Shown here: one piece after another, positions 27,439-51,444 of the stretch
How the letters are laid out: every line of letters begins with the position of its first letter
Numbering within the stretch: the first letter of the stretch is position 1
Assembly (NCBI RefSeq): GCF_000350085.1
Contig: NZ_CAUM01000006.1
Location: 124,001-188,000 of the forward strand
Direction of reading: 5' to 3'
Length of the DNA: 64,000 bases
Source of the DNA: Mesorhizobium metallidurans STM 2683
Lineage (GTDB): Bacteria; Pseudomonadota; Alphaproteobacteria; Rhizobiales; Rhizobiaceae
Translations under genes and position numbers: made by a program
Notes under the pieces: model-generated
Seen by the model: the letters and a program-made list of their open reading frames with translations, nothing else
Told to the model about the DNA's origin: nothing
Databases searched by the model: none

Positions 27439-27514
27439 GCCGCTTTAGCTCAGTTGGTAGAGCACATCATTCGTAATGATGGGGTCAGGTGTTCAAGTCA
27501 CCTAAGCGGCACCA
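27439..27514 (+). tRNA. tRNA-Thr (anticodon CGU), target of the island
   Basis: 76 bases including CCA. Acceptor GCCGCTT pairs with AAGCGGC. D-arm GCTCAGTTGGTAGAGC, anticodon stem-loop CATCA TTCGTAA TGATG giving CGU, T-arm AGGTGTTCAAGTCACCT. The 3' half is duplicated at 46964-47011, so the gene is reconstituted at attL. Confidence 0.96.
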
Positions 27515-27515
27515 A
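27468..27515 (+). repeat. attL: 48-bp direct repeat in the tRNA-Thr 3' half
   Basis: From the anticodon stem through CCA plus one base, identical to 46964-47011 except position 27495 (A here, G in attR). The repeat marks the crossover region of the integrated island. Confidence 0.95.
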
Positions 27516-28373: not shown

Positions 28374-28786
28374 AGTAATAGTCGGGGTCCCCCATTCGCG
28401 AGGCTCAGGGGAACTTGCACCCGCAAAAAAATTGGAACATAAGTCGGGAAGAAGGGAGATCGCTTACGCTCTCTCCCGAAGACTTCCTCACCCCATAGCC
28501 CTAGGTTTCACCCGAGGTCGATGCCGGGCCAGTCTGCTCCGATAGTAGCCCCTGTCCGGAGCCGCGAGTGAATGGCGTACCTCTCAAACTAGATTGCGAC
28601 ACTTGTTCCGCTTTTTACGAGAGGCCGAAAACACAAAATGAAATCAATTTCACGTTGTGACAGAGGGTGACACCCCCGCCTTGCCAAGCGGGTCCTTCGT
28701 TAGCGCGCTCGGCATGATCCGACAGAGGCGGCGGCCAAGGAAGAGAGCACGTTCCTCCACCTGCTTAGCCCTCTGACCGCCCCGCC
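28374..28786. other. Intergenic stretch without a recognised gene
   Basis: About 410 bp. It contains the near-palindrome at 28638-28653 and G+C-rich sequence with CCCTGTCCGGAGCC. No open frame here looks protein-like on either strand. Confidence 0.5.
28638..28653. promoter_or_regulatory. Near-palindromic site, copy 1
   Basis: ATGAAATCAATTTCAC: a GTGAAAT-CA-ATTTCAC dyad with one outer mismatch. Exact copies occur at 32034 and 44461, all within the island and outside genes. Possible operator. Confidence 0.5.
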
Positions 28787-30256: not shown

Positions 30257-30958
30257 GTGGCTGAAAAAACTAAAACTCAAACGGAAAGATCGCCAACTCT
30301 GATAGAGGTGGTGAAAGTATCTCCGCAAATATTACTTTGGCTAGTGGTACTGATAGGATTGTGGGTGTTTCATCCAGTGATTGGTCAGCTTATAGGACGT
30401 GCAACTAAGGTCGGAATAGGCCCGATATCAATTGAGGCGGTCCAGCAAAAGCTGAAAAATTTAACGATTTCTCCAAATCTAAGTGCCCTGATGACAAAAG
30501 AGCAGGTTGCTCATGTGACCAAGCGCTTTAACGAGGCCACCGACGGTTCTCCAAATGTCAATATTCTTTGGGTGGATGACACTCCGATAAACAACCGGAC
30601 CGTTATAGGCATTTTCGAAGCAATGGGATTTCACGTCTATGTCGCCCGATCCTATGCCGAAGGCATTGCGCGGTTCGACGAGCGCCCCTTCAACGTTGTC
30701 ATATCGGACTACAACGAAGAGAGGGACCCGGATCAAATCGAGGCAAAGAAGACAGGTAGGGCGGACTGGGGAGTTGGAGCCTTGATCGCAGAGCATGTTG
30801 GCAAAAGCTGTGGGGCTAGGACGATCATTTTCAGCGCGGGATGGGACCCCGGCCAAAGCACGCCGCCTTACGCTGTCGTTGAGACCAACAATCGATATGT
30901 GTTGTTGGACGCGACGGCCAACCTCATCGAGAAGCCAATAGAACCGGACTGCTTGTAA
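30257..30958 (+). CDS. Membrane-tethered response-regulator receiver protein
   Basis: 233 residues from GTG 30257. One transmembrane segment (about 24-47, ILLWLVVLIGLWVFHPVIG), a linker, then a receiver domain from about 100: acidic pair Asp107/Asp108 in ILWVDD, phospho-acceptor Asp151 in VVISDYNE, Ser193 in IIFSAG and Lys226 in EKPIEP. No output domain and no histidine kinase gene nearby. The gene is A+T-rich compared with its flanks. It may sense or titrate phosphate at the membrane. Confidence 0.75.
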   Translation: MAEKTKTQTERSPTLIEVVKVSPQILLWLVVLIGLWVFHPVIGQLIGRATKVGIGPISIEAVQQKLKNLTISPNLSALMTKEQVAHVTKRFNEATDGSPNVNILWVDDTPINNRTVIGIFEAMGFHVYVARSYAEGIARFDERPFNVVISDYNEERDPDQIEAKKTGRADWGVGALIAEHVGKSCGARTIIFSAGWDPGQSTPPYAVVETNNRYVLLDATANLIEKPIEPDCL

Positions 30959-30995
30959 CTGCCGTGATCCGCGTCGGTGAAGAATTCAGCGATAT

Positions 30996-31712
30996 CTAGA
31001 ACAACGATCCTTGGGCCGGCGCTGTCGGTACTTGTTGCGGAAACTTGATTTGCGTGGCGGGCTTCTCGACAATCACCAAGGCGTCGTCTGGTGCTGTACG
31101 TTGTAGGCGCTTCGCCTCAGACCAAGGCGCGGTCAGCCACGTCTCAGTCTCCTCTTGCGTCCTCAGGATCACTGGCATTGCCTTCTCGTGGATAGGCTTG
31201 ATGAGGGCGTTGGGAGCGGTTGTCAGGAAGCCATAGACCTCGTGATCGCCGGGACCGTCCTTCACCTTGCGCACCCCATGCCAAGGGGTCCATAGACCTG
31301 CAAAGAAGAAAAGCGGGCGGTCCTCGTTCAACGCGAACCAGTAGTTGCGCTGAACGCCTGTCTCGGGGTCCTTCTCCTTCTCCACAGGGCTGGGTTCCGC
31401 GAAGCTGGTTACTGGCACCACGCAGCGATGCTCGACGCCAAGATACTGCTGCCAGTGTGCATAGTTCGGGTGACGTATGTTCGTCCTGCCATAGTCGGCC
31501 TTGCCCTTAACCTGATCGGGTTCGGTCGGCATTCCCCAAAGCAGATTGGCAAGCTCTCGCTCCCCGTCCAACGCATTTCGAACTACCGGACCGGGAGGCC
31601 GGTTGGGATAGATGTCTATGGACGGCTCTAGGTTCCCCAATATGTCCCGCAAGGCGCGGGTCCACTGGCGAATGGCTTCTTGAGACGTGGTGATGTTGTA
31701 GAGGTTGCACAT
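30996..31712 (-). CDS. SOS response-associated peptidase (SRAP / YedK-HMCES family)
   Basis: 238 residues; start ATG 31712 puts the catalytic Cys at position 2 (MCNLYN). SRAP proteins form a DNA-protein crosslink with abasic sites in single-stranded DNA through this Cys. Other family features: LLWGMPTEP, NIRHP, TSFAEPS (active-site Glu region), PIHEKAMPVIL (His). Often found on mobile elements. An upstream in-frame start at 31775 would hide the Cys and is rejected. Confidence 0.9.
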   Translation of the reverse strand: MCNLYNITTSQEAIRQWTRALRDILGNLEPSIDIYPNRPPGPVVRNALDGERELANLLWGMPTEPDQVKGKADYGRTNIRHPNYAHWQQYLGVEHRCVVPVTSFAEPSPVEKEKDPETGVQRNYWFALNEDRPLFFFAGLWTPWHGVRKVKDGPGDHEVYGFLTTAPNALIKPIHEKAMPVILRTQEETETWLTAPWSEAKRLQRTAPDDALVIVEKPATQIKFPQQVPTAPAQGSLF

Positions 31713-32444
31713 GAGGTGAAGCTTGCCCCGGATAGCTGGAAAATTCCAGATGGTCGGGGATATACGGCAATCCAAACCGTGGGAGTTGGGATCGTGAACG
31801 ACGCGGGGATGTAGCCGGAGACATTGTGATGGCCCGATAGTGGTTCGGGAGACATGTCCGCGAAAGCGCGTTTGACCTCACGGCAGAAAGCAGCAACCTC
31901 AATCAGGGGAAGGTAATCCAGGTCGTCGGAAGAAACCGAACCGCTCGTGTCCCCGCGTGCACAATCCGGGCAGGGACGTTAGGGACATCCCGCAGACAAC
32001 AACCGCCGTTCCAAAGGCGATGTTCCGCGTGGTGTGAAATCAATTTCACATGGTGATCCGATCTGCCGCATCGTCATCTGGCTCGCGAAGAGTGCAGCGT
32101 TCGAAGACCATCTAACTTAGGACGCCGAGCGCTGCCGAGCCGATCCCGACCGGCGCGACTGATTTGCCCGAACTGCCGAGGGCGTCAATGTCGAGCGCTT
32201 TTCCATTATCCACGCTCGGCACGATTTGCCCTAGCAGAATGTCTATGCATTTCCTGCACAGCAGCTTTCGCCGGGATTGACCGGGATCGATACGAAGCGA
32301 GCGGCAAGGCACTCTCTGGCGATGGTTAACCATCAGACGGCGAAGCCGAGAGAAAGCTGAATAACAGTTCGCATGCTCTGCCCTTGCTCCCCACGCTTTC
32401 GTGCGGGGCCAAAGTTCTGGCCTCCCGAACGTGGGAGTTCCGCC
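31713..32444. other. Intergenic stretch with a palindromic site
   Basis: About 730 bp without a convincing gene. It contains the perfect dyad at 32033-32050. A minus-strand reading frame at 32112-32330 with CRKCIDILL is possible, but no homology or ribosome site supports it. The last 15 bases give the GTGGGAG ribosome site of the next gene. Confidence 0.45.
32033..32050. promoter_or_regulatory. Perfect palindromic site, copy 2
   Basis: TGTGAAATCAATTTCACA, two 8-base arms around CA. The most complete of three copies in the island. Between the divergently placed SRAP gene and the RarA-C-like gene. Confidence 0.55.
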
Positions 32445-33521: not shown

Positions 33522-34476
33522 GCACCACACCGACACCGGGAGCTTGGTTCCTGTCCACGCAAACCGCGAAGCGCTGCCGGGCATCATTTCGGTAAACGTG
33601 CAGCGGCTTCTTTCCAACTCCCTCGCCGATAACAGTAAGCGCGCATACGCTATGGACATCGCCCATTTCGAGGCCACCGGCAGAAGGCTCCCGGCAACCC
33701 CGGCGACCATTGCAGAGTATCTGGCCGAGGGCGCGGCGACCTATGCCGTGGCGACCCTCCAGCGGCGTCTGGCTTCGATCAGCAAGGCCCATCGCGCCAT
33801 CGGCGCGGACGATCCCACCAAGAGCGAGCTTGTCTGTGCGGCCCTCCGTGGTGTGCGCCGAACTCTCGGCGTTAAGCAGCGGCAGGCAAAGGCACTACTC
33901 CGCAATGACCTCTTTGCCGTGCTTGACCGGCTCGGAGACCGGACGAAGGATGTCAGGGACCGCGCTCTGCTGTTGCTGGGTTGGGCGTGTGCAATGAGAC
34001 GCAGCGAGTTGGTGGCGCTGGACGTGAGTGACGTTGAGTTCACGAGCCAAGGCATGCTGGTCACGGTGAGAAGGTCGAAGACGGATCAAGAGGGAGCCGG
34101 ACGCGAAATCGCAGTCCCGTTCGGTCGAACCCGGCACTGTCCAATCGCGGCTCTGAAACGCTGGCTTGAGATCGCGGCGATCACGGCAGGCCCGATCTTT
34201 CGCGGCATGGACAAGCACGGACACATCCTCCCCGAGCGGCTTTCGGGTGAAGCCGTCACAGATGTGGTCAAGCTGCGGGTCAGTGAGGCTGGATACGATC
34301 CGAGCGGGTTCTCGGCTCATTCCATGCGCAGCGGGTTCGCGACCTCGGCTGCTATGGCAGGAGCTACGAGCTACCGGATACGGTTGGTTACAGGGCATCG
34401 CAGCGAAGCTGGCCTAGCGCCCTATCTGCGCACTGTTGATTTATTCGATGACAGCGCGGCGGCTAGGGTACTATAG
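33508..34476 (+). CDS. Site-specific tyrosine recombinase (second in the island)
   Basis: 322 residues. N-terminal SAM-like core-binding domain (NSKRAYAMDIAHFEATG), then a catalytic domain with Arg164/165 (CAMRRSEL), Lys191 (RRSKTDQ), His271-x-x-Arg274 (SAHSMRSGFAT), His297 (TGHRSE) and Tyr306 (LAPYLR). Complete active site. It is far from the att sites and distinct from the end-proximal integrase, so it may act on another site, on resolution of dimers, or on a nested element. Overlaps the upstream gene. Confidence 0.88.
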   Translation: MTFVEHHTDTGSLVPVHANREALPGIISVNVQRLLSNSLADNSKRAYAMDIAHFEATGRRLPATPATIAEYLAEGAATYAVATLQRRLASISKAHRAIGADDPTKSELVCAALRGVRRTLGVKQRQAKALLRNDLFAVLDRLGDRTKDVRDRALLLLGWACAMRRSELVALDVSDVEFTSQGMLVTVRRSKTDQEGAGREIAVPFGRTRHCPIAALKRWLEIAAITAGPIFRGMDKHGHILPERLSGEAVTDVVKLRVSEAGYDPSGFSAHSMRSGFATSAAMAGATSYRIRLVTGHRSEAGLAPYLRTVDLFDDSAAARVL

Positions 34477-34511
34477 ACCAACAGTAACATCTATTTGGAA
34501 CAGCAGAGTGT

Positions 34512-35861
34512 ATGGCTTACGACGGCGGAAAAACTTACAAAGACGTCGCGGCAGCTCTAGGCGAGTTGCCAAATTTCTACCCGAACGCCACGTCGATTGC
34601 CGAGTTTCGCCCAAATTCGCTGACGATCCACTTTCACTATCTAAACCGTGAGAGTTATGCGGAGGTCGGATCGGGGAAGACCAATTCTGCCGATAGACCA
34701 AAAGTAGAAGTCGTCGCTCACGAACTGGCACACTGGTCAGATCAGGTCAGCTCGCTCTGGGGGCAACGATACCTCACGGGACTTTTCGATGCTTATCATG
34801 CGATGCGTGCAGGTAGGGAAGAGCTATTTAAAGATGTTGTGACGTTGTACGACGAGCAGCGACGCATTCTATTTCCTCGCTACTATCGAGTTGTGGCCGA
34901 CGCACCACGCCTACATAGCCACAAGATGCCTTGGCGTATCGATTTCTCTGCTGGTCAGGAGTTCGATGCCTATGGGGCAATTGATGAGACCCGTCCCATC
35001 TATTTTGTCGCCTTTTCGGACAATGAGAACGGAACTCGCGTGGCGCGCCAGCCAATCACAGTGGGCTCGCTACTTGAAACAACAGCCACGTGGGCTGAGT
35101 TACTGACGGGCTTTGGCATCATTAGCAGTTTGGGCCACGACGAACAGGTCGTTGAACGTGCCTTATGGATGAAGGAGCGACTTACTGCGCTGTATCAACC
35201 CGATTTGACAGTATATACCGCTCCAGTCCACATGCTCGCCAAATTTACTGGCGTGAGCGATCTGCTTTGGTCGTACGAGCGGGGCGCTGTTCTAGCGAAC
35301 ATAGCCCTCAATATGACTAAAGTGCATTTCGACAGTCTGCGACACCCGGATGAGTTTGCGCCGTTTGGGTCTCGTCGCCGCGCCTTCGCGATAGCCCAAA
35401 ACAGGGGTTATGCCTTTGCCGTTCTAGCAAGACACGCCTCGAAAGTCGATACTGAGAAGGGCGCGCTGACATGGGCATCAGAGGTGTTGAGCCGGGCAGG
35501 GCTGCCAGAATGGCCGGCAATGCTGCACGCCTCTTACACCGGGCTTGAGTTGCTTGGTCGCGGTCTTCCAGTGAGGACACCGCTGGATGAGGTCCGCGAC
35601 TACCTCCTCGAAATCGGACGTAAGAGGTTTCTTGGTCGTAGCGATGCGCTTCACGACGGCGGCCTGTTCGACCCCCTCAAGATGGGCCTTGAGCCTCATC
35701 CTCCCATGTTCGATAGCAATGGACAGCTCTTCCATCTCGGCAAGCAGGGACTTGACCCCAAACGTTTCGATCCAGAAGCGATGCACCTTGCCGAGCTGCG
35801 CTTCAGCGACTTCACCTCAAATCTGCTGCAAGGTTGTCGAGGCGTGAGGGTAGCAAGCTGA
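34512..35861 (+). CDS. Hypothetical protein with HExxH zincin motif
   Basis: 449 residues, soluble. VEVVAHELAHWSDQVSS contains HELAH at 70-74, the zinc-metallopeptidase consensus, followed by a mostly helical protein. The third ligand could not be placed. It is the first gene of a plus-strand run leading into two DNA methyltransferases, so it may be an accessory of that locus. Family not recognised. A+T content is higher than the chromosomal flanks. Confidence 0.65.
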   Translation: MAYDGGKTYKDVAAALGELPNFYPNATSIAEFRPNSLTIHFHYLNRESYAEVGSGKTNSADRPKVEVVAHELAHWSDQVSSLWGQRYLTGLFDAYHAMRAGREELFKDVVTLYDEQRRILFPRYYRVVADAPRLHSHKMPWRIDFSAGQEFDAYGAIDETRPIYFVAFSDNENGTRVARQPITVGSLLETTATWAELLTGFGIISSLGHDEQVVERALWMKERLTALYQPDLTVYTAPVHMLAKFTGVSDLLWSYERGAVLANIALNMTKVHFDSLRHPDEFAPFGSRRRAFAIAQNRGYAFAVLARHASKVDTEKGALTWASEVLSRAGLPEWPAMLHASYTGLELLGRGLPVRTPLDEVRDYLLEIGRKRFLGRSDALHDGGLFDPLKMGLEPHPPMFDSNGQLFHLGKQGLDPKRFDPEAMHLAELRFSDFTSNLLQGCRGVRVAS

Positions 35862-35915
35862 CCCGCCATCCGGGATAACAACAAATAACTAGAGCCTCGA
35901 ACGGCAAGCGAAATC

Positions 35916-36122
35916 GTGGAGGACTGGCGGATTTTGGACGCCTCCAGCGTTGCTGACGCCAACTCGGAGGCGAGTAGTTGGTGGATGCCTGAGAAAATGT
36001 CCCAGCGTCGGCGGCTAGATCCGCTCATTTTGCAATACCTGGGGTTAACGGATAAATCGGCTCCACTTAGTGGTGCCAAGCGGCTACGCTGGTCAACCAA
36101 GCCGCAGGTCAATTTAGCATGA
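35916..36122 (+). CDS. Possible small protein coupled to the methyltransferase
   Basis: 68 residues from GTG 35916. It ends with an ATGA overlap on the following methyltransferase start, the usual sign of coupling. The sequence (ILDASSVADANSEASSWW, later LILQYLGLTDKSAPLSG) is not clearly protein-like and has no good ribosome site. May be chance. Confidence 0.35.
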   Translation: MEDWRILDASSVADANSEASSWWMPEKMSQRRRLDPLILQYLGLTDKSAPLSGAKRLRWSTKPQVNLA

Positions 36123-37258
36123 ACTTTCAAAGCACTGCAGATGTCATTCGGCGCGAGGCGACAGACAAATTCGCTGGTGTAGATTGGAGCTTCGCAGGGC
36201 GGGTCGCTGGAGACGACCTGGAGAGCATCCACCCATATCCGGCCAAATTCATTCCTGAAATACCTGGGACCATCTTGGATCGGCTCCCTGTCGAAAAGGG
36301 TCTGGCTGTCCTTGATCCGTTTGTTGGCAGCGGCACGACGCTTGTGGAGTGTCAGCGCCGAGGTGTGCGCTCGATCGGTATCGATCTTAATCCGATAGCT
36401 TGCCTAATAAGCCGGGTGAAAACTCGGCCAGTTCCGGCCAACTTAGGTGACGCATTGCAAGACGTGATACGCCGAGCTGACAAAGATAAAGCCGTAGCCA
36501 TTCCGAGTATCCCCAACTTGCTTCATTGGTTTTCCGAACCCGTGGCAGGGGCGCTCGCTCAGCTTGTTCACTCGATTTCCGACAGTCCAAAGCAATACTC
36601 GGATGTGCTAAAACTCGCGCTTTCGAGCGTTCTCGTTCGCGTCTCCAACCAGGAGAGCGATACCCGTTATGCCGCCGTGTCAAAGAATGTGTCGCCGGAC
36701 GCCGTCTATGAGGCTTTCAGGTCGGCCTGTCAGAAGCTCAACAACGCCCTCATCAACCGAGACTACGAGTTGCCCCAGTCAACGGTGCTTGAGCGCGATA
36801 CGTTGGCCGTGGAGCCGTCTGACATGTCAGAAAAAATTGGGGCCGTAATCACGTCGCCACCTTACCCCAATGCCTATGAGTATTGGCTGTATCACAAATA
36901 CAGGATGTGGTGGCTTGGGTACGACCCGCTTTGGGTGAAGGACCGCGAAATCGGAGCGAGGGCCCATTTCTTTAAGGTAAAGCGGCACACAGCAAGTCAT
37001 TTCGTGGAGCAGATGCAGCGAACATTTTCGCTGATTGACCGCGTCTTATCACCAAATGGGTATGCCTGCTTTGTGGTAGGTCGATCAAAAATCCACGGCG
37101 AGATAGTAGACAACGCGCAGATCGTCGAGAACGCGGCGAGATCCTTTGGCTTTAAAACGGAATATAGAACCGAGAGAATTATTGCCCGGAATAGGAAATC
37201 TTTCAATTTGTCTCACGCCAATATAAAAACTGAAACGATCATCATTCTGAGCCGATAA
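36119..37258 (+). CDS. DNA amino-methyltransferase 1 (SPPY type)
   Basis: 379 residues. HPYPAKFIPEIPG leads to SAM motif I LDPFVGSGTTLVECQRRG, then IDLNP. Catalytic motif IV SPPYPNAYEYW lies near residue 246, and SPPY favours N4-methylcytosine. C-terminal NGYACFVVGRSK and NIKTETIIILSR close the fold. Order motif I before IV. The next gene encodes a second, different SPPY enzyme and starts directly after this stop, so the pair probably methylates the two strands of an asymmetric site. Confidence 0.9.
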   Translation: MNFQSTADVIRREATDKFAGVDWSFAGRVAGDDLESIHPYPAKFIPEIPGTILDRLPVEKGLAVLDPFVGSGTTLVECQRRGVRSIGIDLNPIACLISRVKTRPVPANLGDALQDVIRRADKDKAVAIPSIPNLLHWFSEPVAGALAQLVHSISDSPKQYSDVLKLALSSVLVRVSNQESDTRYAAVSKNVSPDAVYEAFRSACQKLNNALINRDYELPQSTVLERDTLAVEPSDMSEKIGAVITSPPYPNAYEYWLYHKYRMWWLGYDPLWVKDREIGARAHFFKVKRHTASHFVEQMQRTFSLIDRVLSPNGYACFVVGRSKIHGEIVDNAQIVENAARSFGFKTEYRTERIIARNRKSFNLSHANIKTETIIILSR

Positions 37259-38731
37259 ATGAACCTTCTCTATCACAAATACAAATACTACCCTTATGAA
37301 CGCGAGCTTGCACTTCGCGAGGTCACCGCCCTCATAGGCGATAAGCTCGTGACTGAGATTGAAGATGGATTTGTCGTACCCGCCGACACTGACATCAGCA
37401 GGTTAGTGTACTTTTCGAAGGCCGCCAGTGGTTCGTCGACGACGGAAACGATCCAAGCCCGGCTTGAGCGTGCAGCGAAGACAGGGACAAACCGACAAGC
37501 TACCCGCTATTCTGTTCACGGGCTTCACGAGTACAAGGGAAAATTCAATCCGCAAGTTGCAAAGGCAATCCTGAACATCTTTGGGATCACACCCGGAGCT
37601 AATGTGCTCGACCCCTTTTGCGGAAGTGGCACCAGTTTGGTTGAATGCACGCAAATTGGTGCGGTGGGGACGGGTATCGACATCAACCCGCTGGCAGTTT
37701 TCATCGCGAACGCAAAACTGAGAGCTTTGGCGACACCGGCAAGCGTGTTGCACGGTGTGTTCGACAAAATCGAACGTAGACTATGGGATGCAACGCCCTT
37801 CTCTGACAAAACTTCACCCGAGCGAGACGACTACCTAGCGTCCTGGTTTTTACCGGAGCAATTGTCAAAGATTGAGCGTGTGCGAGGGCTGATCGAGCTT
37901 GAGGGCGGAGATTGTCGTGCCGTACTGCTGACGATTGCGAGCAATTTGCTCAGAGATTATTCGATGCAGGACCCTGGCGATCTGCGCATCAGACGGCGAA
38001 CGTCCCCGATGCCGGATGAGGATTTTCGGACAGCTTTCATGCGCGCATGTCGGGCGTTTTCCGAGAAATTGGCCGAGGCACAGAAGGTTGTCGGTGTAAT
38101 TCCTTCGTCCAGCGCGGCTCTTCTCGGCAGCTCTGTCAGCGGCCTAGAAGTGGGCCGCACTGCGCAGTTTGACGCTGCGATAACCAGCCCGCCTTATGCT
38201 ATGGCGCTTCCATACATCGACACCCAACGCTTGTCGCTTGTTTGGCTAGGCCTACTACCGGCAAGCCGTATTCTCGGCCTGGAGAGTGAGCTGGTCGGGA
38301 GCCGGGAGCTGAGGGGGAATGCCCGAAAAACCCTTGTAGCGGCTATGCACGACAATACTGCGAGCATTCCCGTTGAGCAGCACGCCTTATGCACTTCCTT
38401 GCAAGAAAAGCTCACCGCCTCGGACGGCTTCCGACGCAAAGCGGTTCCCATACTTTTGTACCGCTATTTTTGCGATATGCTCCATGCTTTCCGCAACATC
38501 CAAACCATGATGAAGCGCAATGCACCGTTTGCGCTGATTGTTGGGCACAATCACACAAACCTGGGCGGTGCCAGACAGGACATTGATACGCCCCATCACC
38601 TTTCATCTATTGCACTGATGGCTGGATGGAGATTGGAAGAGCAGCTCCCGCTACAAACATACCGTCGCTACGGCTATCACAGCAGCAACGCTGTAGGAGC
38701 AGAAACGCTAATCATTCTTAGGAATTCCTAG
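37259..38731 (+). CDS. DNA amino-methyltransferase 2 (SPPY type)
   Basis: 490 residues. An extra N-terminal segment (about 1-75) precedes the HGLHEYKGKFNPQVAKAILN block, motif I LDPFCGSGTSLVECTQIG with IDINP, and motif IV SPPYAMALPYIDTQRLS near residue 312. Ends with NAVGAETLIILRNS. Starts immediately after the stop of methyltransferase 1. It shares the fold plan with that gene but differs in length and target-recognition parts. The convergent PLD nuclease gene ends 2 bp downstream. Confidence 0.9.
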   Translation: MNLLYHKYKYYPYERELALREVTALIGDKLVTEIEDGFVVPADTDISRLVYFSKAASGSSTTETIQARLERAAKTGTNRQATRYSVHGLHEYKGKFNPQVAKAILNIFGITPGANVLDPFCGSGTSLVECTQIGAVGTGIDINPLAVFIANAKLRALATPASVLHGVFDKIERRLWDATPFSDKTSPERDDYLASWFLPEQLSKIERVRGLIELEGGDCRAVLLTIASNLLRDYSMQDPGDLRIRRRTSPMPDEDFRTAFMRACRAFSEKLAEAQKVVGVIPSSSAALLGSSVSGLEVGRTAQFDAAITSPPYAMALPYIDTQRLSLVWLGLLPASRILGLESELVGSRELRGNARKTLVAAMHDNTASIPVEQHALCTSLQEKLTASDGFRRKAVPILLYRYFCDMLHAFRNIQTMMKRNAPFALIVGHNHTNLGGARQDIDTPHHLSSIALMAGWRLEEQLPLQTYRRYGYHSSNAVGAETLIILRNS

Positions 38732-38733
38732 GA

Positions 38734-40173
38734 TTACCAGCGTGGCGAAACGCCCGCCGGGAGCCAGCATGCACCATTTCCAACGTGACCAATAAGCTGG
38801 TTCGCCGACGTAGCCGCACGGATTATCATTTCCGCCTGAGTGTAAAGCGACGAGCTTTTCTGGATGGCGGTTAAGCGGAATGATGGATCAGCGTGCGTGG
38901 GCCACTCCAATAGTGCCAGATCATCATCTACAGGTATTGAAAACCCAGCCGAATTGACCTGCGGGAGTAGGTTTGTGATCGGCGGCTTTGGCACGATCAT
39001 TCGGACGTCCTTATTTCCAGGATCACTATGTTCATATCCATAGGCCATGACGTTTGTTGTGGCTGGGGCCGCGACAATGTTTGCATTCCCGGAGACGTAG
39101 CGAACATGCATTCCGAACTCTGCTCTCGGGCGACTTGGGGTCCGTGCAGAACTCCCGTACCGCCCAAACCTCAAGGTATGAAGAGTGGTCACCGGAAGGG
39201 AGATGTTTGCCGTTCCGGGCGCTCCACGCCAATGACGGCCACTGTCCCTATTCCAGCGGAAAATTATCCCCCCTATGCCGATCGGCAGTTGATGCCCGGT
39301 CAGTGCGTTTGCGCCTGAGGTCGGTGATGTGGTGGTGGGCGCGAACAGCAAATAGGTGGGGTAAGGCGGGCTCTGAGTGACAACGGGAAGTGTAGCCTGG
39401 GTCGCGGTGACCGCCAGCGTTGCGGCAATTGGAGCAACCGTAGCGGTGGTCGGCAACGGTGGGAACGTAAGCAAAGGGTTGAGGCGGGGGCGTGAGCTTC
39501 CTGTTCCTCCGCCGCTGGAAGGAGCTCGTGGCGGCCTGGGAACAGGTAAAAGACTTAGGATGCCAGCCTGAGTGAGCCGGAACACATCCGCTCGATCAGC
39601 AACAATCTCTAAACCCGCACGCCCAACGCCAAACCAGTTGTCTATGCTAAGAGCAATTTCATTGAGGGTGGCCGCATCATCTCCCTCGGCAGTGTCTAAG
39701 AGCACGCCCGCCTCAACGTGCAGTCCAGAAACGCCGGAAGCAGTCAAGTTTGCCGATCCCACATATGCGCCTTGGCTGCCGTCTGCTCGTCTGACGTGGT
39801 AAACCTTCGGGTGAAAGTACGCGCCGGCATAGTAAATCACCCCCAGCCGACCGTTGGCTCGAGGAAGGCCGATCAAATCCGCGAACTGGGCAACGTGGCC
39901 CTCGACAGTTTCCCCATCGTTTGACCCAATCAGCGCGGTGACTGGTGCGTTTGCCGCCCTTAATCTTTCGAGCGGGGTTGCCAAAACCCGAAGCCCTTCA
40001 ACGCCGAAGAAGCCTGACTGCAATCGAAACTCTGTGACATCGTGCGTCAGTTCCGTTTGCAACCAGTTGCCCAAAGCAGACGTCGCAATCCTTGCACCGC
40101 TGTCAATGTATCGTACCAAGTAGTACCCCCAACGAGCCCCTGTCTGTCTTCGCCAATCAATAGCAGCCGTCAT
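38734..40173 (-). CDS. PLD-superfamily nuclease, restriction endonuclease-like (NgoFVII/BfiI type)
   Basis: About 479 residues from ATG 40173; TTG 40179 also possible. N-terminal phospholipase-D-like nuclease domain with a single HxK motif (AYFHPKVYHVRR, His about 121, Lys 123) and the paired YVGSANLTASG. One motif per chain means a dimeric active site, as in BfiI-like metal-independent restriction enzymes. Residues about 210-300 are a Pro/Thr/Ala/Ser-rich linker with several TATQATLP-like repeats; the C-terminal half may bind DNA. Convergent with the two methyltransferases and probably their restriction partner. Confidence 0.8.
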   Translation of the reverse strand: MTAAIDWRRQTGARWGYYLVRYIDSGARIATSALGNWLQTELTHDVTEFRLQSGFFGVEGLRVLATPLERLRAANAPVTALIGSNDGETVEGHVAQFADLIGLPRANGRLGVIYYAGAYFHPKVYHVRRADGSQGAYVGSANLTASGVSGLHVEAGVLLDTAEGDDAATLNEIALSIDNWFGVGRAGLEIVADRADVFRLTQAGILSLLPVPRPPRAPSSGGGTGSSRPRLNPLLTFPPLPTTATVAPIAATLAVTATQATLPVVTQSPPYPTYLLFAPTTTSPTSGANALTGHQLPIGIGGIIFRWNRDSGRHWRGAPGTANISLPVTTLHTLRFGRYGSSARTPSRPRAEFGMHVRYVSGNANIVAAPATTNVMAYGYEHSDPGNKDVRMIVPKPPITNLLPQVNSAGFSIPVDDDLALLEWPTHADPSFRLTAIQKSSSLYTQAEMIIRAATSANQLIGHVGNGACWLPAGVSPRW

Positions 40174-40479
40174 GCGCAACGGCCATGCCAGAGACAGAGT
40201 TTTGTTGAGTTCTCGGGCGCATCCACCAACGGGCCGAATGTGGCGAACACCAAGTTGAGCAATAGCATCGAGAGCACGACGCTGGCGGATTTTTAAAGTC
40301 GATAGTGAAGTCCCATTCTCGGGCGTGGCATAAAATCCAGGAAATTTGGAAAATCTTGTCCCTGATCACCCGATTGTTTTGGATAGAGTGATGCAGCTCC
40401 TCAATTTTTACCATTGCGTTTAATTGAGGCTCATTATTCACCCGGTAGGCTGGGCCACCGGAAACGAGGATTTTCTCGC
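40174..40479. other. Upstream region of the nuclease gene; possible decayed frame
   Basis: About 300 bp. On the minus strand the nuclease frame stays open with protein-like sequence upstream of its first usable start (for example QRRALDAIAQLGVRHIRPV), but has no ATG, GTG or TTG before a TGA. A second minus frame opens at 40441 with MVKIEELHHSIQNNRVIRDK. A frameshift or a lost start may have shortened the gene. No other feature is seen. Confidence 0.4.
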
Positions 40480-40983
40480 ATGCTAACAGTTCCGCTGGAT
40501 GCCAGCCCCGTTAACGTTGGGGTGGCTGCACCAAAACGTTATACGACCAAGCAGATGGGCGATGCCTGCGAAATGATCGTAGCCGCCGAACTGACGCTTG
40601 CAGGCATCCCCGCCCTGAAAGTGCCCGACAATTGGCCCGGTTACGATGTCATCGCACAGCCATTGGACGCGGAGCCACAGCGCATATCGGTCAAATCCCG
40701 TACATACAAAACGGGGCCAGCCTACGTGGGCTACAATGACTATGACGTTTTCGACTGGCTTGCTGTTGTTCTTCTGTTTGTCGATGGCCGCAACAGCAGA
40801 CACGTTTATCTGATACCAAGATCGGTAACAGACAAGTTGGCGAGGCGAGACCAGCCCACCAGCAAAACAGCATCGGAGCGGTATTTTCGCGTCGATCAGA
40901 TTGATCGTCTGTTCTGCCATTATCGCGCGAACTTCAACCTAAACCCGCTGGGAAATACGAGCATGACAGAACCAGCAAGTTAG
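40480..40983 (+). CDS. PD-(D/E)XK nuclease-like protein
   Basis: 167 residues. GDACEMIVAAELTLAGIPAL supplies the helix and Glu that precede the active site, then PGYDVIA (Asp) and RISVKSRTY (V-K-x, the ExK-type pair with Val in place of Glu/Asp). This resembles small endonuclease-like proteins of the group I intron / DUF4365 type. It may act as a nuclease in the adjacent restriction locus or be independent. ATG 40480 was chosen over an upstream start. Confidence 0.7.
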   Translation: MLTVPLDASPVNVGVAAPKRYTTKQMGDACEMIVAAELTLAGIPALKVPDNWPGYDVIAQPLDAEPQRISVKSRTYKTGPAYVGYNDYDVFDWLAVVLLFVDGRNSRHVYLIPRSVTDKLARRDQPTSKTASERYFRVDQIDRLFCHYRANFNLNPLGNTSMTEPAS

Positions 40984-41127
40984 TTGACGAGCGCGCCTGC
41001 TCCTCGGAAATGCCGGGGAACTGGAGTTGTTCCGACGACCACGCCATGGCTGCCGAGCATACGCGGGGGTTTCTCAGAACGTGGTGCGTTGCTAGGGTGG
41101 TATTGTCGATCAAGCCGGTGCGTTGCC

Positions 41128-43282: not shown

Positions 43283-44347
43283 TCAAAGACCCGCGCCCTG
43301 AATGCGAGCGATGCCTTCATTCCCCGTTTCCATGAGAGTTCTAAGCGTCCGACCTTTGACGCTTGGTTCATCTAGCGCCAGGTGCATCGCTGGTCCTAAC
43401 ATCGCACCGAACGCGTGCCGCTCGCCCGAAAAGCTTCTGCTGACCACGCCACGGACCACTACACCCTCAGCGCCGAAGACAGGCGCGCCACTCATCTTGC
43501 CGGGAATTTTGGCTTTGAAATCGAAGCAAGGGCCAGGTGTCGGCACTTCCCTGTCGAGATGATTTCTCGGAAAAATCCGCATCACTTCCCCAATTGAAAC
43601 ATAGAGGTCCATCCTGAACTCCTTGATGGACATGCCCTTGCTGCCATACTCCAAGGGAATATCTTCCATTTCGGCATACCCCAAGGAGTATGCTGCTTCA
43701 GCCGGCACGAAGGCGTTTAGCGAAAGGCCAAGGGGCTGGTGCGCAGCGCCGCCGGGCATCTCGGGGATTTTGCAGATTGCAATGTCGGTCAGGAATTCGA
43801 ACCTGTCGCTCTCGTGTAGAAGAGGCGTTTCCTTCCAGCTTCCCCAGAGCCAGAACTTTTCGAAGGGAAAAAAGCGAAACCCGCGAAAACCGTATCCCGG
43901 ACCAAGTGGAATGATGACGCCAAAATTTAGTTGATCAGCAAACGCCAGTTGGTTGCCTCGGCGCACCGCGCCATATCCGCTGTCATACGGGTCCATGAGC
44001 ACATGAGCGGCAGTGATCACGTAGCCTGAACAACTGATCACGGAAGCCGTTCCGACACAACGAATTGAGGTCTCTCCCTCCTTCCATGCCACAACCGGCA
44101 GGATGCTCTGCTTCAAAAGGAAGTCGGTCGGACCGAACGTAGCCATCAGTTCGGTGATGTTCATACTCGGTCTGGAGGTCATCAACTCAAGTTCGCTTTC
44201 GAACGCAAAGTAATCTGCACCGAAACCTGCTTGCGGCTTGAGATCAATTCCCTTCAGATTAGTGATAGCCCATCGACCATCCGACGTGCGGGACCACAAT
44301 GACTTCAATATGGATATCGGCGGTGTGATTGAATTGTCGGCGTCCAT
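43283..44347 (-). CDS. Trypsin-like serine protease without export signal
   Basis: 354 residues. Catalytic triad by motif: His115 (GYVITAAHVL), Asp188 (FLTDIAICKI) and Ser286 (GKMSGAPVFG). No signal peptide or membrane segment, so predicted cytoplasmic. Cytoplasmic trypsin-like proteases are known as effectors in some anti-phage systems. No partner sensor gene is adjacent, but the protein has about 80 residues before the protease domain that might sense something. Confidence 0.8.
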   Translation of the reverse strand: MDADNSITPPISILKSLWSRTSDGRWAITNLKGIDLKPQAGFGADYFAFESELELMTSRPSMNITELMATFGPTDFLLKQSILPVVAWKEGETSIRCVGTASVISCSGYVITAAHVLMDPYDSGYGAVRRGNQLAFADQLNFGVIIPLGPGYGFRGFRFFPFEKFWLWGSWKETPLLHESDRFEFLTDIAICKIPEMPGGAAHQPLGLSLNAFVPAEAAYSLGYAEMEDIPLEYGSKGMSIKEFRMDLYVSIGEVMRIFPRNHLDREVPTPGPCFDFKAKIPGKMSGAPVFGAEGVVVRGVVSRSFSGERHAFGAMLGPAMHLALDEPSVKGRTLRTLMETGNEGIARIQGAGL

Positions 44348-44460: not shown

Positions 44461-44476
44461 GTGAAATCAATTTCAC
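44461..44476. promoter_or_regulatory. Perfect palindromic site, copy 3
   Basis: GTGAAATCAATTTCAC, exact core as at 32034. It lies between the serine protease (upstream side) and the RHH gene (downstream side) with no gene over it. Confidence 0.55.
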
Positions 44477-44505
44477 TTCCAAATACGCAACAGTTGCGTA
44501 TTTGA

Positions 44506-45612: not shown

Positions 45613-45916
45613 ACCCCTCCACACCCCCGAAGAAACAGCAAAGATACTCGGCATATCCATCAAGACCCTGCGTGAGCATATCGAGCTAGGTCGCATCCGT
45701 TCCATCATCGTCGGCACTGGCAAGAAGCGAAAGCGTCGAAGGTTTACCGACAAAAACATTCAGTCGTTTATCGAAGGTCAGAAGTTGCGTGAGGCTCCCC
45801 CGTGTCAGTCTATAAAAGCTCCAAAAGCCCATACTACGCCTATGACTTCCAACTCGACGGTCGTCGCTTTTTCGGTTCTACAAAAGCCCGGAACAAGAAA
45901 GACGCTGAAACAGTAG
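45605..45916 (+). CDS. Excisionase-like helix-turn-helix protein
   Basis: 103 residues. MerR/excisionase-type winged helix: LHTPEETAKILGISIKTLRE, then HIELGRIRSIIVGTGKKRKR. Its C-terminus overlaps the integrase start by 115 bp in another frame; the last 40 residues are low in complexity and may not matter. Binding near attR to bend DNA and direct excision is the likely role. Confidence 0.8.
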   Translation: MVEPLHTPEETAKILGISIKTLREHIELGRIRSIIVGTGKKRKRRRFTDKNIQSFIEGQKLREAPPCQSIKAPKAHTTPMTSNSTVVAFSVLQKPGTRKTLKQ

Positions 45917-46932
45917 AGCGCCAAATCAAGGCGAAGGCCAAGGATGACATCGAACGCGAGAAGCGTACCGGCAATGGACCCATGACACTCGACCTGGCGG
46001 CGGGGCGCTACTGGAATGAAGTCGGGCAACATCACCGGGGCAGCAGCCACAAGAACACGTGGCACTATCTTGAACTGCTCACTCAGTTCTTCGGCAAGCA
46101 CAAGCGGCTTGAAGAAATCACCGACGCCGACGTGTCCGCTCTTATCGCGTGGCGGCGTAGGCACACCCTCCACGGGAAGACGGAAGACAAGGACGGCAAC
46201 CCCGTCGCTACGGTGTCGAACTCGACCGTAAACCGCTCCACGGTTGTGGTGCTGAAAGCGATCTTCACCCGAGCCAAACGCACATGGAAGTACCCCCTGC
46301 CTCTCGAACCGAACTGGCGGGACCATTGGTTGGCGATGCCGGAAGAACGAGTGCGGGAACTGGACGACAAGGAAGCTGAAGCCTTGGACGCCTCAGTCCG
46401 CGACGACTATGCCCTCTGGTTTGAGTTCGCCCGTGTGACCGGCCTACGCCGGAACGAAACCCTGATCAGGTGGAAGAACGTGACGCTCAAACAGATCGTC
46501 ACCACGGGAAAGCGCGGCAAGAAGGTGACGGCACAAATCACCCCCACCGTTCGCGCGATCCTTGACCAGTGCATGGGGCACCACGATCAGTTCGTCTTCA
46601 CCTACATCTGTCAGCGCCCCGTCGAAGGACGGGTAAAGGGTGATCGATACCCGATCACGTCCGAAGGGGCGAAGTCGCAATGGCGACGGCTGAAGAAGCG
46701 GGCGAAGGTGGAGGATTTCCGGTTCCATGACATTCGTCATGACGTGGCGACCAAGCTGTTGAGGAAGACGGGAAACATGCGCTTGGTGCAGAAGGCGCTC
46801 AACCATTCCAACATCGCGACTACGGCCCGTTATGCCCATGTTCTGGAGGATGAAGTCGCGGAGGCGATGGAGCAGCTTGCCCAGTCCCGGAAAAAACCCC
46901 GGAAAAGAAGGCGGAGGCGGCTTAGATGTTGA
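45802..46932 (+). CDS. Site-specific integrase (tyrosine recombinase) of the island
   Basis: 376 residues from GTG 45802. N-terminal arm-binding domain (YKSSKSPYYAYDFQLDGRRF), SAM-like core region, and catalytic domain with Arg216 (TGLRRNE), His309/Arg312 (RFHDIRHD), His335 (LNHSNI) and Tyr344 (TARYAHV). The gene ends 31 bp before attR and points toward it. It probably catalyses the tRNA-Thr att crossover. Very basic C-terminus (about 20 Lys/Arg residues). Confidence 0.95.
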   Translation: MSVYKSSKSPYYAYDFQLDGRRFFGSTKARNKKDAETVERQIKAKAKDDIEREKRTGNGPMTLDLAAGRYWNEVGQHHRGSSHKNTWHYLELLTQFFGKHKRLEEITDADVSALIAWRRRHTLHGKTEDKDGNPVATVSNSTVNRSTVVVLKAIFTRAKRTWKYPLPLEPNWRDHWLAMPEERVRELDDKEAEALDASVRDDYALWFEFARVTGLRRNETLIRWKNVTLKQIVTTGKRGKKVTAQITPTVRAILDQCMGHHDQFVFTYICQRPVEGRVKGDRYPITSEGAKSQWRRLKKRAKVEDFRFHDIRHDVATKLLRKTGNMRLVQKALNHSNIATTARYAHVLEDEVAEAMEQLAQSRKKPRKRRRRRLRC

Positions 46933-46963: not shown

Positions 46964-47011
46964 CATTCGTAATGATGGGGTCAGGTGTTCGAGTCACCTA
47001 AGCGGCACCAA
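46964..47011 (+). repeat. attR: 48-bp direct repeat of the tRNA-Thr 3' half
   Basis: Duplicate of 27468-27515 with one difference (G46991 versus A27495). It keeps the T-loop GTTCGAGTC of the original chromosomal gene, while attL carries GTTCAAGTC from the island. Confidence 0.95.
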
Positions 47012-47683
47012 ATTTTCTCAGTAAAACCAAGGGTCTAGATCCAACCATCCGGTCGGTCGAGTTGGAGACATCGCTTTGCGCCAAGCCTTTGTCTCCACGT
47101 TGTCTCCAGAAAAATGCGGGCTGCCGGATACGGATGGCGAACTGCGGCGACGTTCCTGGCCTCGACGCTCCGCCAATCGCGATGCGGCGTGGGCGAAGCG
47201 GCCGCTGGAGTACATACTGGCCGAAGACGACGGCGGCGCTCGTCAGTCCCGTTTGCCGCAGCGGATAGAATCCGCGGTCATGACGGATTTGTCGGCTCGA
47301 GTCCGACCGCCAGCACCATCCCCTTCAGACTACGAATCTGGGGGTCAGAGTTCGAATCTCTTCGGGTGTGCCAGTTTCGTCAATAAAAACAGTGAGTTAT
47401 GGCGTTTGCGAGAGTGCCGATCAGATGCTGGCAATTTCCGCGTAAGCAGCAGGCCACGTTTCGACGGCATCTGGATGGTGTCAGCCGAAGCGACTTTGTC
47501 TGTAAGACTTCCAAATACTACCCAAATTAAACATCCCGTAGATGCAAATCGCGCGACCGCTGCCACAAAGGCAGCGGTCGAAATTGTCGGGTGCTAGCGG
47601 TGTGGGCACGCCCAGTGCAAGATCCAGGAGGCAATCTTCGCTTCGGATTGCGCCTCAGCGGCCGCCAATGGCGGTAACCGCTG
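47012..47683. other. Region right of attR, decayed sequence
   Basis: About 670 bp without a convincing gene. Besides the tRNA-Arg fragment it has a stretch (47,180-47,320) with weak resemblance to a class II tRNA arm, and a hairpin-like CGACCGCTGCC / GGCAGCGGTCG near 47,555-47,580. It looks like degraded older mobile-element sequence. Confidence 0.5.
47325..47373 (+). pseudogene. 3' fragment of tRNA-Arg (ACG)
   Basis: TCAGACTACGAATCTG gives an anticodon arm with ACG, followed by a T-arm around GTTCGAATC and an end in TCGGGTGTGCCA. It matches the 3' half of rhizobial tRNA-Arg(ACG) in form, but no 5' half is present and the T-stem has a mismatch. A duplicated 3' half is what an integrated element leaves at attR. 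Confidence 0.65.
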
Positions 47684-48562
47684 TCAGATCATGTTCGACA
47701 TGCCGAGCGCAGTAAGCAGGTTGTTTTGAATAGGAGCGACGGCCTGATTCAGTTCCTCCACCCCGAAGTCCATGCCCTCTGGCATGACGACGGTGCGCAA
47801 CGGGCGCCGTTCCGTAGCCTCGACTAGCCGTGCGATGGCGTCAGCCACCAACTGAGGGCGGGGTGGATTCGCAGGATCATGTCCCTGGTCGGAGTTGTTT
47901 TTGATTTGGCCTGGGACCAACGCAACTGCGCCATATGTCGCCAAGACCTGCTCGTCGGAGGGCGCTAGGCTGGATGGAAGCAGATTGCTCGGAAATGGCC
48001 CCGGTTCCACGATCACTGAGTCTACCCCGAAGCTGGACAGTTCATATCGATACGCCTCGGCAAGCGCTTCAAGAGCGAATTTGCTTGCGGAATAGACCCC
48101 AAAGAACGGAAAGATGACCCGCCCCATCAACGACGTGACGTGAATGAGAACGCCGCTACCAGCTGCACGCATATGGGGTAGGACGGCGCGATCGGCCCTT
48201 ACGGCCCCAAAAAAATTCACCGCAAATTGCTCCTCGATGTCTGCCACCGTATAGGCTTCGGTCACGCCGACGAACATCGTGCCTGCGTTGTTGATGAGCG
48301 CATCGATCCTGCCGTGTTGCCTAACCACCCGATCAATCGCAGAGTTGACTGACGCGTCGTCCGTCACATCCATCTCAATGACATGCAACTCATGCCCTTC
48401 GGTTTTTGCAGCGTCGATTAGCTCGCTGCCGATTTGGCTGTTTTTACCTCCGATGTCGCGCATGGTCGCGACCACCACGTGACCGCGCCTGGCAAGCTCC
48501 AAGGCGGTGAGCCTTCCAAAACCGCTGCTCGCGCCGGTAACAACTACAACCTTGCTGCTCAT
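47684..48562 (-). CDS. Short-chain dehydrogenase/reductase (SDR) family oxidoreductase
   Basis: 292 residues. Cofactor motif TGASSGFG, MDVTDD, NNAG, catalytic Ser in VTSLMG and YSASK (Tyr-x-x-x-Lys). Classical SDR; substrate unknown. Divergent from the TetR gene with a shared 130-bp promoter region, so probably under its control. Common arrangement for detoxification or quinone/ketone reductases. Confidence 0.9.
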   Translation of the reverse strand: MSSKVVVVTGASSGFGRLTALELARRGHVVVATMRDIGGKNSQIGSELIDAAKTEGHELHVIEMDVTDDASVNSAIDRVVRQHGRIDALINNAGTMFVGVTEAYTVADIEEQFAVNFFGAVRADRAVLPHMRAAGSGVLIHVTSLMGRVIFPFFGVYSASKFALEALAEAYRYELSSFGVDSVIVEPGPFPSNLLPSSLAPSDEQVLATYGAVALVPGQIKNNSDQGHDPANPPRPQLVADAIARLVEATERRPLRTVVMPEGMDFGVEELNQAVAPIQNNLLTALGMSNMI

Positions 48563-48607
48563 TTTCTCGATCCTCTCGCTTGCCCACCTAACGGGACAAG
48601 GGGGGTA

Positions 48608-48657
48608 TATACAGACCTGTATGTCCCTTGCAAAGGGAAAATAGACAGACTATTCTG
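48608..48657. promoter_or_regulatory. Two inverted-repeat operators between the SDR and TetR genes
   Basis: ATACAGACCTGTAT (48608-48621) and ACAGACTATTCTGT (48644-48657) share the half-site ACAGA/TCTGT form. They are 36 bp apart centre to centre and cover the space between the divergent starts. Good candidates for TetR dimer sites. Confidence 0.65.
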
Positions 48658-48690
48658 TTTCTGGCACCGAACGCGCACTGGCAGGCGAGA

Positions 48691-49317: not shown

Positions 49318-49476
49318 TCGAAAGAAAATTCGCGTCTGCTCGGCCTGATGATCAAACTCCAGGCACCAAATGTGGTCACAAGATTTTTTTGCAACAGAGC
49401 CAACTTAAGTCGATCCCATCCGACCTCTCTGTTTCTTGTTGTCCTCGAACTAATGTCACGCCCCAATGGAGATACA

Positions 49477-50943: not shown

Positions 50944-50960
50944 TCTACATCCTTTGGTTT

Positions 50961-51401: not shown

Positions 51402-51444
51402 ACCGTACCTAAAGAGACAAATCAGAGTTCACTGGCGAACTAGT

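What the first reader, a model, noticed from the sequence alone, without database searches (positions are those of the whole stretch)
34512..40983. Candidate new restriction-type defence locus: HExxH protein, two SPPY methyltransferases, PLD nuclease, PD-(D/E)XK-like protein
Seen: a plus-strand run of a 449-residue HExxH protein and two clearly different SPPY DNA methyltransferases that abut directly. A PLD-superfamily nuclease ends 2 bp from the second methyltransferase on the other strand, and a small PD-(D/E)XK-like gene follows. Known, from memory: BfiI-type systems pair a dimeric PLD nuclease with two amino-methyltransferases for an asymmetric site. Inference: this is a restriction-modification system of that kind. 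The HExxH protein and the second nuclease fold would be new accessories, and the long low-complexity linker in the nuclease is unusual.
Basis: partly seen in the sequence, partly recalled or inferred. Interest (0 to 1): 0.72.

Follow-up and report, generated by a model that had tools for sequence, protein, structure and literature searches.

The report
BfiI-type restriction system, replaced nuclease

Summary
MT1 (36119-37258), MT2 (37259-38731) and the convergent PLD nuclease (38734 to about 40119) form a Type IIS restriction-modification system of BfiI type. A genome scan with MT2 gave 80 loci in bacteria and archaea: 79 carry MT1 beside or fused to MT2 (one a fragment), and 71 a PLD nuclease within 220 bp of MT2. 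Three nuclease lineages occur: BfiI itself (39 loci; profile matches PDB 2C1L with 601 bits), the window's lineage (11) and a third (21). The window's lineage has no PDB sequence match to BfiI, yet its model has BfiI's architecture: PLD domain with one HxK...GSxN site, disordered linker, B3-like DNA-binding domain (Z 11.3 to BfiI-C). The MT2 tree places the window among BfiI-paired MT2s and rejects one origin of window-type pairing (p about 1e-4): nucleases were exchanged on one methyltransferase chassis. The HExxH gene and the small PD-(D/E)XK-like gene were found in none of the 80 loci; they are probably island passengers. Predicted target ACTGGG, as for BfiI; untested. Verdict: new variant of a known kind.

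The parts
36119..37258 (+). MT1: SPPY amino-methyltransferase (379 aa), probably m4C, one strand of the asymmetric site (inferred)
   Evidence: PADLOC MTase_II PDLC03364 residues 12-378, E 7e-127; Pfam N6_N4_Mtase; relatives beside MT2
37259..38731 (+). MT2: second SPPY amino-methyltransferase (490 aa), other strand (inferred); ATG directly after the MT1 stop
   Evidence: PADLOC MTase_II PDLC03377 residues 3-489, E 3e-144; tree and AU test
38734..40119 (-). Restriction nuclease, about 461 aa from TTG 40119: PLD domain (HPK...GSAN, E156), linker, C-terminal B3-like DNA-binding domain; convergent with MT2. Residue numbers in this report count from TTG 40179.
   Evidence: Pfam RE_NgoFVII; alignment A3; AF2 model and fold searches: 2c1l Foldseek E 4.1e-12; 3zi5 Z 11.3, rmsd 3.1, 151 aligned, model 297-481
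34512..35861 (+). HExxH protein: neighbour, probably not part of the R-M system
   Evidence: found in 0 of 80 MT2 loci; relatives lie beside other genes
40414..40983 (+). Small PD-(D/E)XK-like ORF (start uncertain): neighbour, probably not part of the R-M system
   Evidence: weak PDDEXK_5; relatives 70-73% identical over about three quarters of the query on three Mesorhizobium plasmid records; no MT or PLD match in the stretches read
27468..27515 (.). left att repeat at the 3' end of tRNA-Thr(CGT)
   Evidence: 48-nt direct repeat, 98%; tRNA 27439-27514
46964..47011 (.). right att repeat of the 19.5 kb island that holds the system
45802..46932 (+). tyrosine integrase next to the right att
   Evidence: Pfam Phage_integrase E 4.5e-25

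Best explanation
A complete Type IIS restriction-modification system of BfiI type on a tRNA-Thr genomic island. MT1 and MT2 each methylate one strand of one short asymmetric site, probably as N4-methylcytosine. The convergent nuclease is a PLD-B3 fusion: its B3 domain reads the same site when unmethylated, two PLD domains dimerise to form one metal-independent active site (His123, Lys125, Asn144, Glu156), and it cuts a few bases downstream, one strand after the other through a phospho-histidine intermediate. The nuclease is not BfiI itself but a distant PLD-B3 lineage that has taken BfiI's place beside a BfiI-type MT pair. Shown here by computation: gene content, conservation of the triad, homology, conserved active-site residues, modelled domain architecture, repeated re-pairing of nucleases. 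Inferred: dimerisation, cleavage chemistry, m4C product, restriction of phage, and the site (ACTGGG by transfer from BfiI, about 0.4).
For: 80 loci found with an MT2 alignment (the best 80 of 121): MT1 as a separate gene beside MT2 in 76 (one, L083, a 114-aa fragment) and fused to it in 3 (L102, L111, L112); a PLD nuclease within 220 bp of MT2 in 71 (4 of them cut short); of the 9 without, 3 end at or near a contig end. 39 of the 71 are BfiI-type, whose profile matches PDB 2c1l over residues 1-356 of 358 with 601 bits. Window-type nuclease: H123, K125, G141-S142-A143-N144 and E156 invariant in 12 of 12; profile-profile to the third lineage E 3e-31 over 374 columns, to BfiI E 5e-10 over the PLD domain; model best matches BfiI (Foldseek E 4.1e-12; VIA Z 18.9 but rmsd 16.7 over 310, so the domains are better judged apart: B3 domain 3zi5 Z 11.3, rmsd 3.1, 151 aligned). 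Window MT2 sits in a supported clade (98/96) with two BfiI-paired MT2s, L030 and L036; the AU test rejects one clade of window-type-paired MT2s, p 9.8e-5. Sliding identity of the window MTs to three BfiI-paired loci shows no local collapse beyond that among BfiI-paired loci, by inspection. PMC4267653 (passages): BfiI has two independent methylases on opposite strands.
Against: No experiment and no methylome. The C-terminal half of the window lineage has no significant profile similarity to BfiI's (hhalign E 0.074, probability 0.8%), so the B3 assignment rests on a model with mean pLDDT 76 and pTM 0.50. 6 of 80 MT2 loci have room but no recognised nuclease. Of six plasmid neighbourhoods read for MT1 matches, the three more remote ones (L033-L035) lack the triad. 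Starting from the nuclease the link is weaker: of 3 viral-contig relatives one has the MT pair, one has no MT match in the stretch held, and one sits beside what looks by eye like a D12-type MTase.
Confidence: 0.86

Rival explanations
1. The five genes form one new defence system in which the HExxH protease-like protein and the PD-(D/E)XK-like protein are effectors or regulators of the R-M core.
For: Adjacency in the window; some HExxH relatives lie near defence-like or prophage genes, one with a gene annotated as a PLD-domain restriction endonuclease about 8 kb away.
Against: Neither gene found in 80 triad-search loci; 8 HExxH loci and 3 small-gene loci show no MT1, MT2 or PLD match at E 1e-3, two of the HExxH loci being only about 4 kb long; 257 bp separate HExxH from MT1.
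Confidence: 0.04
2. ATP-dependent system of NgoAVII/CglI type (PLD-B3 R protein plus DEAD-Z1 helicase N protein).
For: R.NgoAVII has the same domain order (PMC4267653) and also matches the model (4rct Foldseek E 1.3e-6).
Against: No ORF of helicase size in 28-47 kb, the longest being MT2 with 490 aa; apart from HExxH, MT1, MT2 and PLD the ORFs over 300 aa are one without a clear Pfam match, two integrases, one with a below-cut-off SHOCT match and a trypsin-like protein. Two amino-MTs in place of one MT; the MT pair is that of BfiI homologues.
Confidence: 0.04
3. The MTs act with a different or lost nuclease; the PLD gene is a chance or decayed neighbour (orphan or epigenetic MT pair).
For: The PLD is on the other strand and from a lineage other than BfiI; 6 of 80 MT2 loci have room but no recognised nuclease.
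Against: Window-type nuclease convergent and beside MT2 in 11 of 11 loci of that class, third lineage convergent in 18 of 21; intact frame and active site.
Confidence: 0.05

Closest known systems
BfiI / BmrI Type IIS R-M system (ACTGGG 5/4)
   Same: Same MT-pair family, by neighbourhood with BfiI homologues; PLD + B3 domain order; single HxK...N...E active site
   Different: Nuclease about 100 residues longer with a disordered linker, convergent where BfiI-type genes are collinear in 36 of 39 loci, no PDB sequence match to BfiI and no significant profile similarity in the B3 half; target site unknown
NgoAVII and CglI (PLD-B3 R protein with helicase N protein)
   Same: PLD + B3 nuclease fold
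   Different: They have one MT and an ATPase partner (PMC4267653); no ORF of that size in this island
NgoFVII family (Pfam RE_NgoFVII, PLD)
   Same: PLD domain passes the Pfam cut-off
   Different: NgoFVII reads quasi-symmetric GCSGC (PMC4081073); here two MTs point to an asymmetric site
DISARM DrmC (PLD protein)
   Same: weak PLD motif match (E 8e-4)
   Different: The match covers 29 residues around the motif; no ORF of the size of the DISARM helicase in 28-47 kb

Membership tests
BfiI-type Type IIS R-M system | two separate amino-MTs, one for each strand | tested here: met
   two different SPPY MTs, full-length Type II MTase matches; which strand each marks is not testable here
BfiI-type Type IIS R-M system | MT pair of the family that accompanies BfiI homologues | tested here: met
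   39 of 80 loci pair these MTs with BfiI-type nucleases; window MT2 in a clade with two BfiI-paired MT2s
BfiI-type Type IIS R-M system | nuclease with N-terminal PLD domain, single HxK site | tested here: met
BfiI-type Type IIS R-M system | C-terminal B3-like DNA-binding domain | tested here: met
   on a predicted model: residues 297-481 against 3zi5 Z 11.3, rmsd 3.1, 151 aligned; by sequence profile not significant
BfiI-type Type IIS R-M system | nuclease related to BfiI over its length by sequence | tested here: not met
   no BfiI hit in the PDB with profile A3; hhalign aligns the PLD domain only. So it works like BfiI and has its kind of MT pair, but the nuclease is not counted as a BfiI orthologue
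BfiI-type Type IIS R-M system | recognises ACTGGG, cuts 5/4 downstream without metal | not testable with these tools
   needs biochemistry or methylome
NgoAVII/CglI type | DEAD-Z1 helicase N protein | tested here: not met
   no ORF over 490 aa in 28-47 kb; no helicase among the ORFs over 300 aa
DISARM | core helicase and DUF1998 protein with MT | tested here: not met
   no ORF over 490 aa in 28-47 kb; PADLOC scan of the five proteins gave only a weak local DrmC hit for the PLD; the other island ORFs were not scanned against PADLOC. The core genes of DISARM are recalled

The most novel reading that the evidence does not exclude
One MT-pair chassis has repeatedly exchanged three PLD-B3 nucleases whose recognition halves are partly or wholly unrecognisable to each other by sequence, so strongly diverged (or convergent) B3 domains read the same asymmetric site (ACTGGG); cleavage and recognition halves also shuffle (window-type PLD half on a third-lineage C half in L104, L105 and L217). 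This would be a natural modular platform for Type IIS enzymes.
Probability: 0.35. Interest if true: 0.6.

Novelty: new variant of a known kind. Interest (0 to 1): 0.42.

Why it matters
BfiI is the best-studied metal-independent PLD restriction enzyme (PMC4081073, passages). The survey here finds BfiI-type MT pairs in many phyla including archaea, often with a different PLD-B3 nuclease; the PADLOC scan labelled the window's MTs but gave its nuclease only weak matches, best DrmC. If the exchanged nucleases read the same site, their B3 domains are a natural experiment on how one DNA sequence can be read by strongly diverged domains, and a source of metal-independent Type IIS enzymes with separable cutting and reading halves.

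Tried and rejected
HExxH protein: no Pfam match over cut-off, none in PADLOC or PHROGs; NCBIfam gave three far-below-cut-off hits. An AF2 model from 5 sequences (pLDDT 74.6) gave no Foldseek match at E 1e-3 and a best VIA Z of 5.6, to receptor helices, which I take as noise; a zincin fold is neither shown nor excluded. It is rare: 2 of 199 relatives, 1 of 397 in an order sample and 2 of 398 in a phylum sample, the window's own genome counted each time; no match in the phage records; 4 plasmid records and 2 viral contigs.

Empty site of the island: a 600-base junction probe matched all 101 genomes, mostly on the tRNA-Thr side; in the listed rows (the list was cut) the right-hand flank matched in full only in the own genome and elsewhere in short pieces, so no empty site was shown.

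ACTGGG counts: 7 in the island, 6 in the flanks, observed/expected 0.87 in the window; uninformative. Whole-genome motif statistics were not possible.

Shared motifs in the C halves: D[STCA][AGS]R in 31 of 39 BfiI-type (one of them, GSDAGRGT, does not resemble the others), 10 of 13 window-type and 1 of 23 third-lineage halves; D[FVLI]R[LMI] in 38 of 39, 11 of 13 (2 at another place) and 15 of 23. The profile alignment does not place them together (E 0.074), so this is a lead only.

Scans not followed up: viral contigs with the MT2 alignment kept 80 loci, of which only L116 is a strong match (E 2e-62); none was analysed for a nuclease. The window's PLD alone found no viral contig and no plasmid; a relative's nuclease found no plasmid either. 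A sample of 385 genomes of the class gave one full-length window-type nuclease, the window itself, and 7 partial matches; of these, four loci were checked for MT1 and MT2 without a match, in stretches of about 3 kb.

Papers: no hit for CCCAGT with m4C and motif; ACTGGG with methyltransferase and SMRT gave the review and one unrelated paper. Of PMC4081073, PMC4267653 and PMC10388346 I saw passages only; the other listed papers only as search listings. The primary BfiI papers (Sapranauskas 2000, Grazulis 2005, Golovenko 2014) were not read; the link SPPY to m4C is recalled.

Promoter-like sites in 34300-41000: 2 against 4.0 in shuffles; terminator-like: 7 against 6.8; nothing to build on.
Full report
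Observation. MT1 and MT2 abut: the MT1 stop TAA is followed directly by the MT2 ATG, and 2 bp lie between the MT2 stop and the PLD stop on the other strand. Both MTs carry TSPPY and match two different PADLOC Type II MTase families over nearly their whole length. The PLD protein passes Pfam RE_NgoFVII. Conservation with 11 relatives begins at the equivalent of MRYIDSG, and 6 of the 11 ORFs begin within 2 residues of it, which places the likely start at TTG 40119. The small gene's PD-(D/E)XK match is below cut-off.

Where it lies. A 48-nt repeat (98%) of the tRNA-Thr(CGT) 3' end at 27468-27515 and 46964-47011, with an integrase at 45802-46932 next to the right copy, bounds a 19.5 kb island of lower GC. 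The low GC goes on beyond the right copy to about 54 kb. The window's nuclease has no close relative in 197 other related genomes (two weak partial hits, E 5e-4 and 7e-4) and MT2 only distant ones (best E 8e-21 at 27%): acquired cargo. An empty site could not be shown.

Co-occurrence. Six plasmid neighbourhoods of MT1 matches were read: the three with the nearest or fullest MT pairs hold MT1-MT2-PLD (L030-L032), the three more remote ones do not (L033-L035). The genome scan with a four-sequence MT2 alignment returned the best 80 of 121 loci, many of them metagenome-assembled. By phmmer at E 1e-3 on ORFs of 90 aa or more, MT1 is a separate gene beside MT2 in 76 (L083 a fragment), is fused to it in 3 (L102, L111, L112) and is missing in 1 (L110, a short contig whose upstream ORF looks by eye like a D12 MTase). 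A PLD nuclease lies within 220 bp of MT2 in 71, cut short in 4 (L047, L074, L081, L103); of the 9 others, 3 end at or near a contig end (L080, L096, L110) and 6 have room (L083, L088, L095, L097, L102, L115). The HExxH protein and the small protein were found in 0 of 80; 15 loci hold under 3 kb before MT2 and 18 under 3 kb after it. The loci were chosen by MT2, so this measures nuclease given MT2. Starting from the nuclease, 3 viral-contig relatives gave one MT pair (L217), one without an MT match in the stretch held (L216) and one beside a D12-like MTase (L218), and a sample of 385 genomes of the class gave one full-length match, the window itself, and 7 partial ones.

Three nucleases on one chassis. 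Among the 80 loci: BfiI-type 39 (36 collinear, 3 convergent); window-type 11 (all convergent); third lineage 21 (18 convergent, 3 collinear). The BfiI-type profile matches PDB 2c1l over residues 1-356 of 358 with 601 bits, so this MT pair belongs to BfiI-type systems. The third lineage still finds BfiI (E 1.5e-16) and its C-terminal domain 3zi5 (E 4.4e-6). The window lineage does not, but aligns to the third lineage over 374 columns (E 3e-31) and to BfiI over the PLD domain (E 5e-10).

Structure. The AF2 model of the window's nuclease (12 sequences, pLDDT 76, pTM 0.50) has a confident PLD domain, a low-confidence linker and a C-terminal domain. Foldseek ranks BfiI first (E 4.1e-12). VIA gives 2c1l Z 18.9 (rmsd 16.7 over 310, the domains being placed differently), SauUSI 7clg Z 19.1 (rmsd 4.6 over 180, PLD part), BfiI's DNA-bound C-terminal domain 3zi5 Z 11.3 (rmsd 3.1, 151 aligned, model 297-481) and the LlaJI.R1 N-terminal domain 6c5d Z 10.3 (rmsd 2.6, 126 aligned). 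H123, K125, N144 and E156 are invariant in 12 of 12, matching H105, K107, N125 and E136, invariant in the BfiI-type alignment of 23; the K107A change makes BfiI inactive (PMC10388346, passage).

Exchange. In the MT2 tree of 79 rows (left out: L075, L102, L111 and L112 for ORFs over 620 aa, truncated L096, and the three remote plasmid loci L033-L035) window-type pairing needs 7 changes, 6 forced by well-supported branches (shuffled mean 11.4); it is thus clustered but not of one origin. The window MT2 groups with BfiI-paired L030 and L036 (98/96). Forcing the 12 window-type-paired MT2s together costs 354 log units, p 9.8e-5. Window MT1 and MT2 are 60-61% and 57-59% identical to those two loci's MTs, and their identity profile has much the same shape as that between BfiI-paired systems. 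Inference: the site was kept while the nuclease changed, so the window's enzyme should read BfiI's site ACTGGG. Against this, the C halves of the two nucleases are not alignable by profile (E 0.074), a clade of 16 MT2s is paired only with the third lineage or with none found, and sites can drift at 55-60% identity. Domain shuffling is seen too: L217 (in no profile), L104 and L105 (members of the third-lineage profile) have a window-type PLD half and a third-lineage C half.

Mechanism. By family knowledge (PMC4081073 and PMC4267653, passages): a PLD homodimer with one active site cuts the strands in turn through a covalent phospho-histidine, B3 domains bind the asymmetric site, and two methylases each protect one strand. 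SPPY suggests N4-methylcytosine (recalled). No ORF in 28-47 kb is of the size of the helicase partner of NgoAVII/CglI.

The passengers. HExxH relatives (23-33% identical) lie beside a NACHT gene on a Rhizobium plasmid, beside a NERD-domain gene on a Sphingomonas plasmid that also holds, about 8 kb away, a gene annotated as a PLD-domain restriction endonuclease, on two cyanobacterial plasmids, among prophage-like genes by eye (L197) and near an integrase-like ORF by eye (L198). HExxH and the downstream E189 and E196 are invariant among 7 sequences, so a zinc hydrolase-like role is plausible; no fold match was found. The small gene has 70-73% identical relatives over about three quarters of the query on three Mesorhizobium plasmid records, and a remote one in Sinorhizobium; three of the four were read and held no MT or PLD match.

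Verdict. A real, probably functional BfiI-type system with a diverged nuclease: new variant of a known kind. The review states that several BfiI isoschizomers and over 40 putative PLD restriction enzymes were found by REBASE BLAST by 2014, which limits the novelty; the repeated nuclease exchange on one MT pair is the part that I did not see described in the passages read or in the listings.

Noticed in passing
window 34512-35861; L197 7995-9275; L198 4407-5768; L203 1300-2649: HExxH protein family (about 450 aa) without a Pfam, PADLOC or PHROG match and without a fold match; rare and scattered, in islands, plasmids and prophage-like contigs, sometimes near defence-like genes.
   Followed up: partly
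L104 4068-5342, L105 9275-10498, L217 5983-7239: Nucleases with a window-type PLD half and a third-lineage C-terminal half: apparent domain shuffling.
   Followed up: partly
L218 6004-8178: Window-type PLD half with an unrecognised C half, convergent with an ORF that looks by eye like a D12 adenine methyltransferase: possibly a different R-M system using the same cleavage domain.
   Followed up: no
L102 6807-9596, L111 6576-9536, L112 2-2737: MT1 and MT2 fused in one reading frame.
   Followed up: no
window 28639-28660, 32035-32056, 44462-44483: Three copies of a near-palindromic TGAAATCAATTTCA element in the island (77-100% alike), possibly an operator.
   Followed up: no
window 47012-54000: Low-GC DNA continues beyond the right att; in the listed rows its first 350 bases matched other genomes only in short pieces, suggesting a second mobile element in tandem.
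   Followed up: no
window 43283-44347 and L002 398-1237: A trypsin-like gene lies in the window's island and, by eye, next to the HExxH relative in L002.
   Followed up: no
window 30257-31775: A protein with a below-cut-off response-regulator match and an N-terminal hydrophobic stretch (30257-30958 +) and an SRAP (SOS-associated peptidase) gene (30996-31775 -) in the same island.
   Followed up: no
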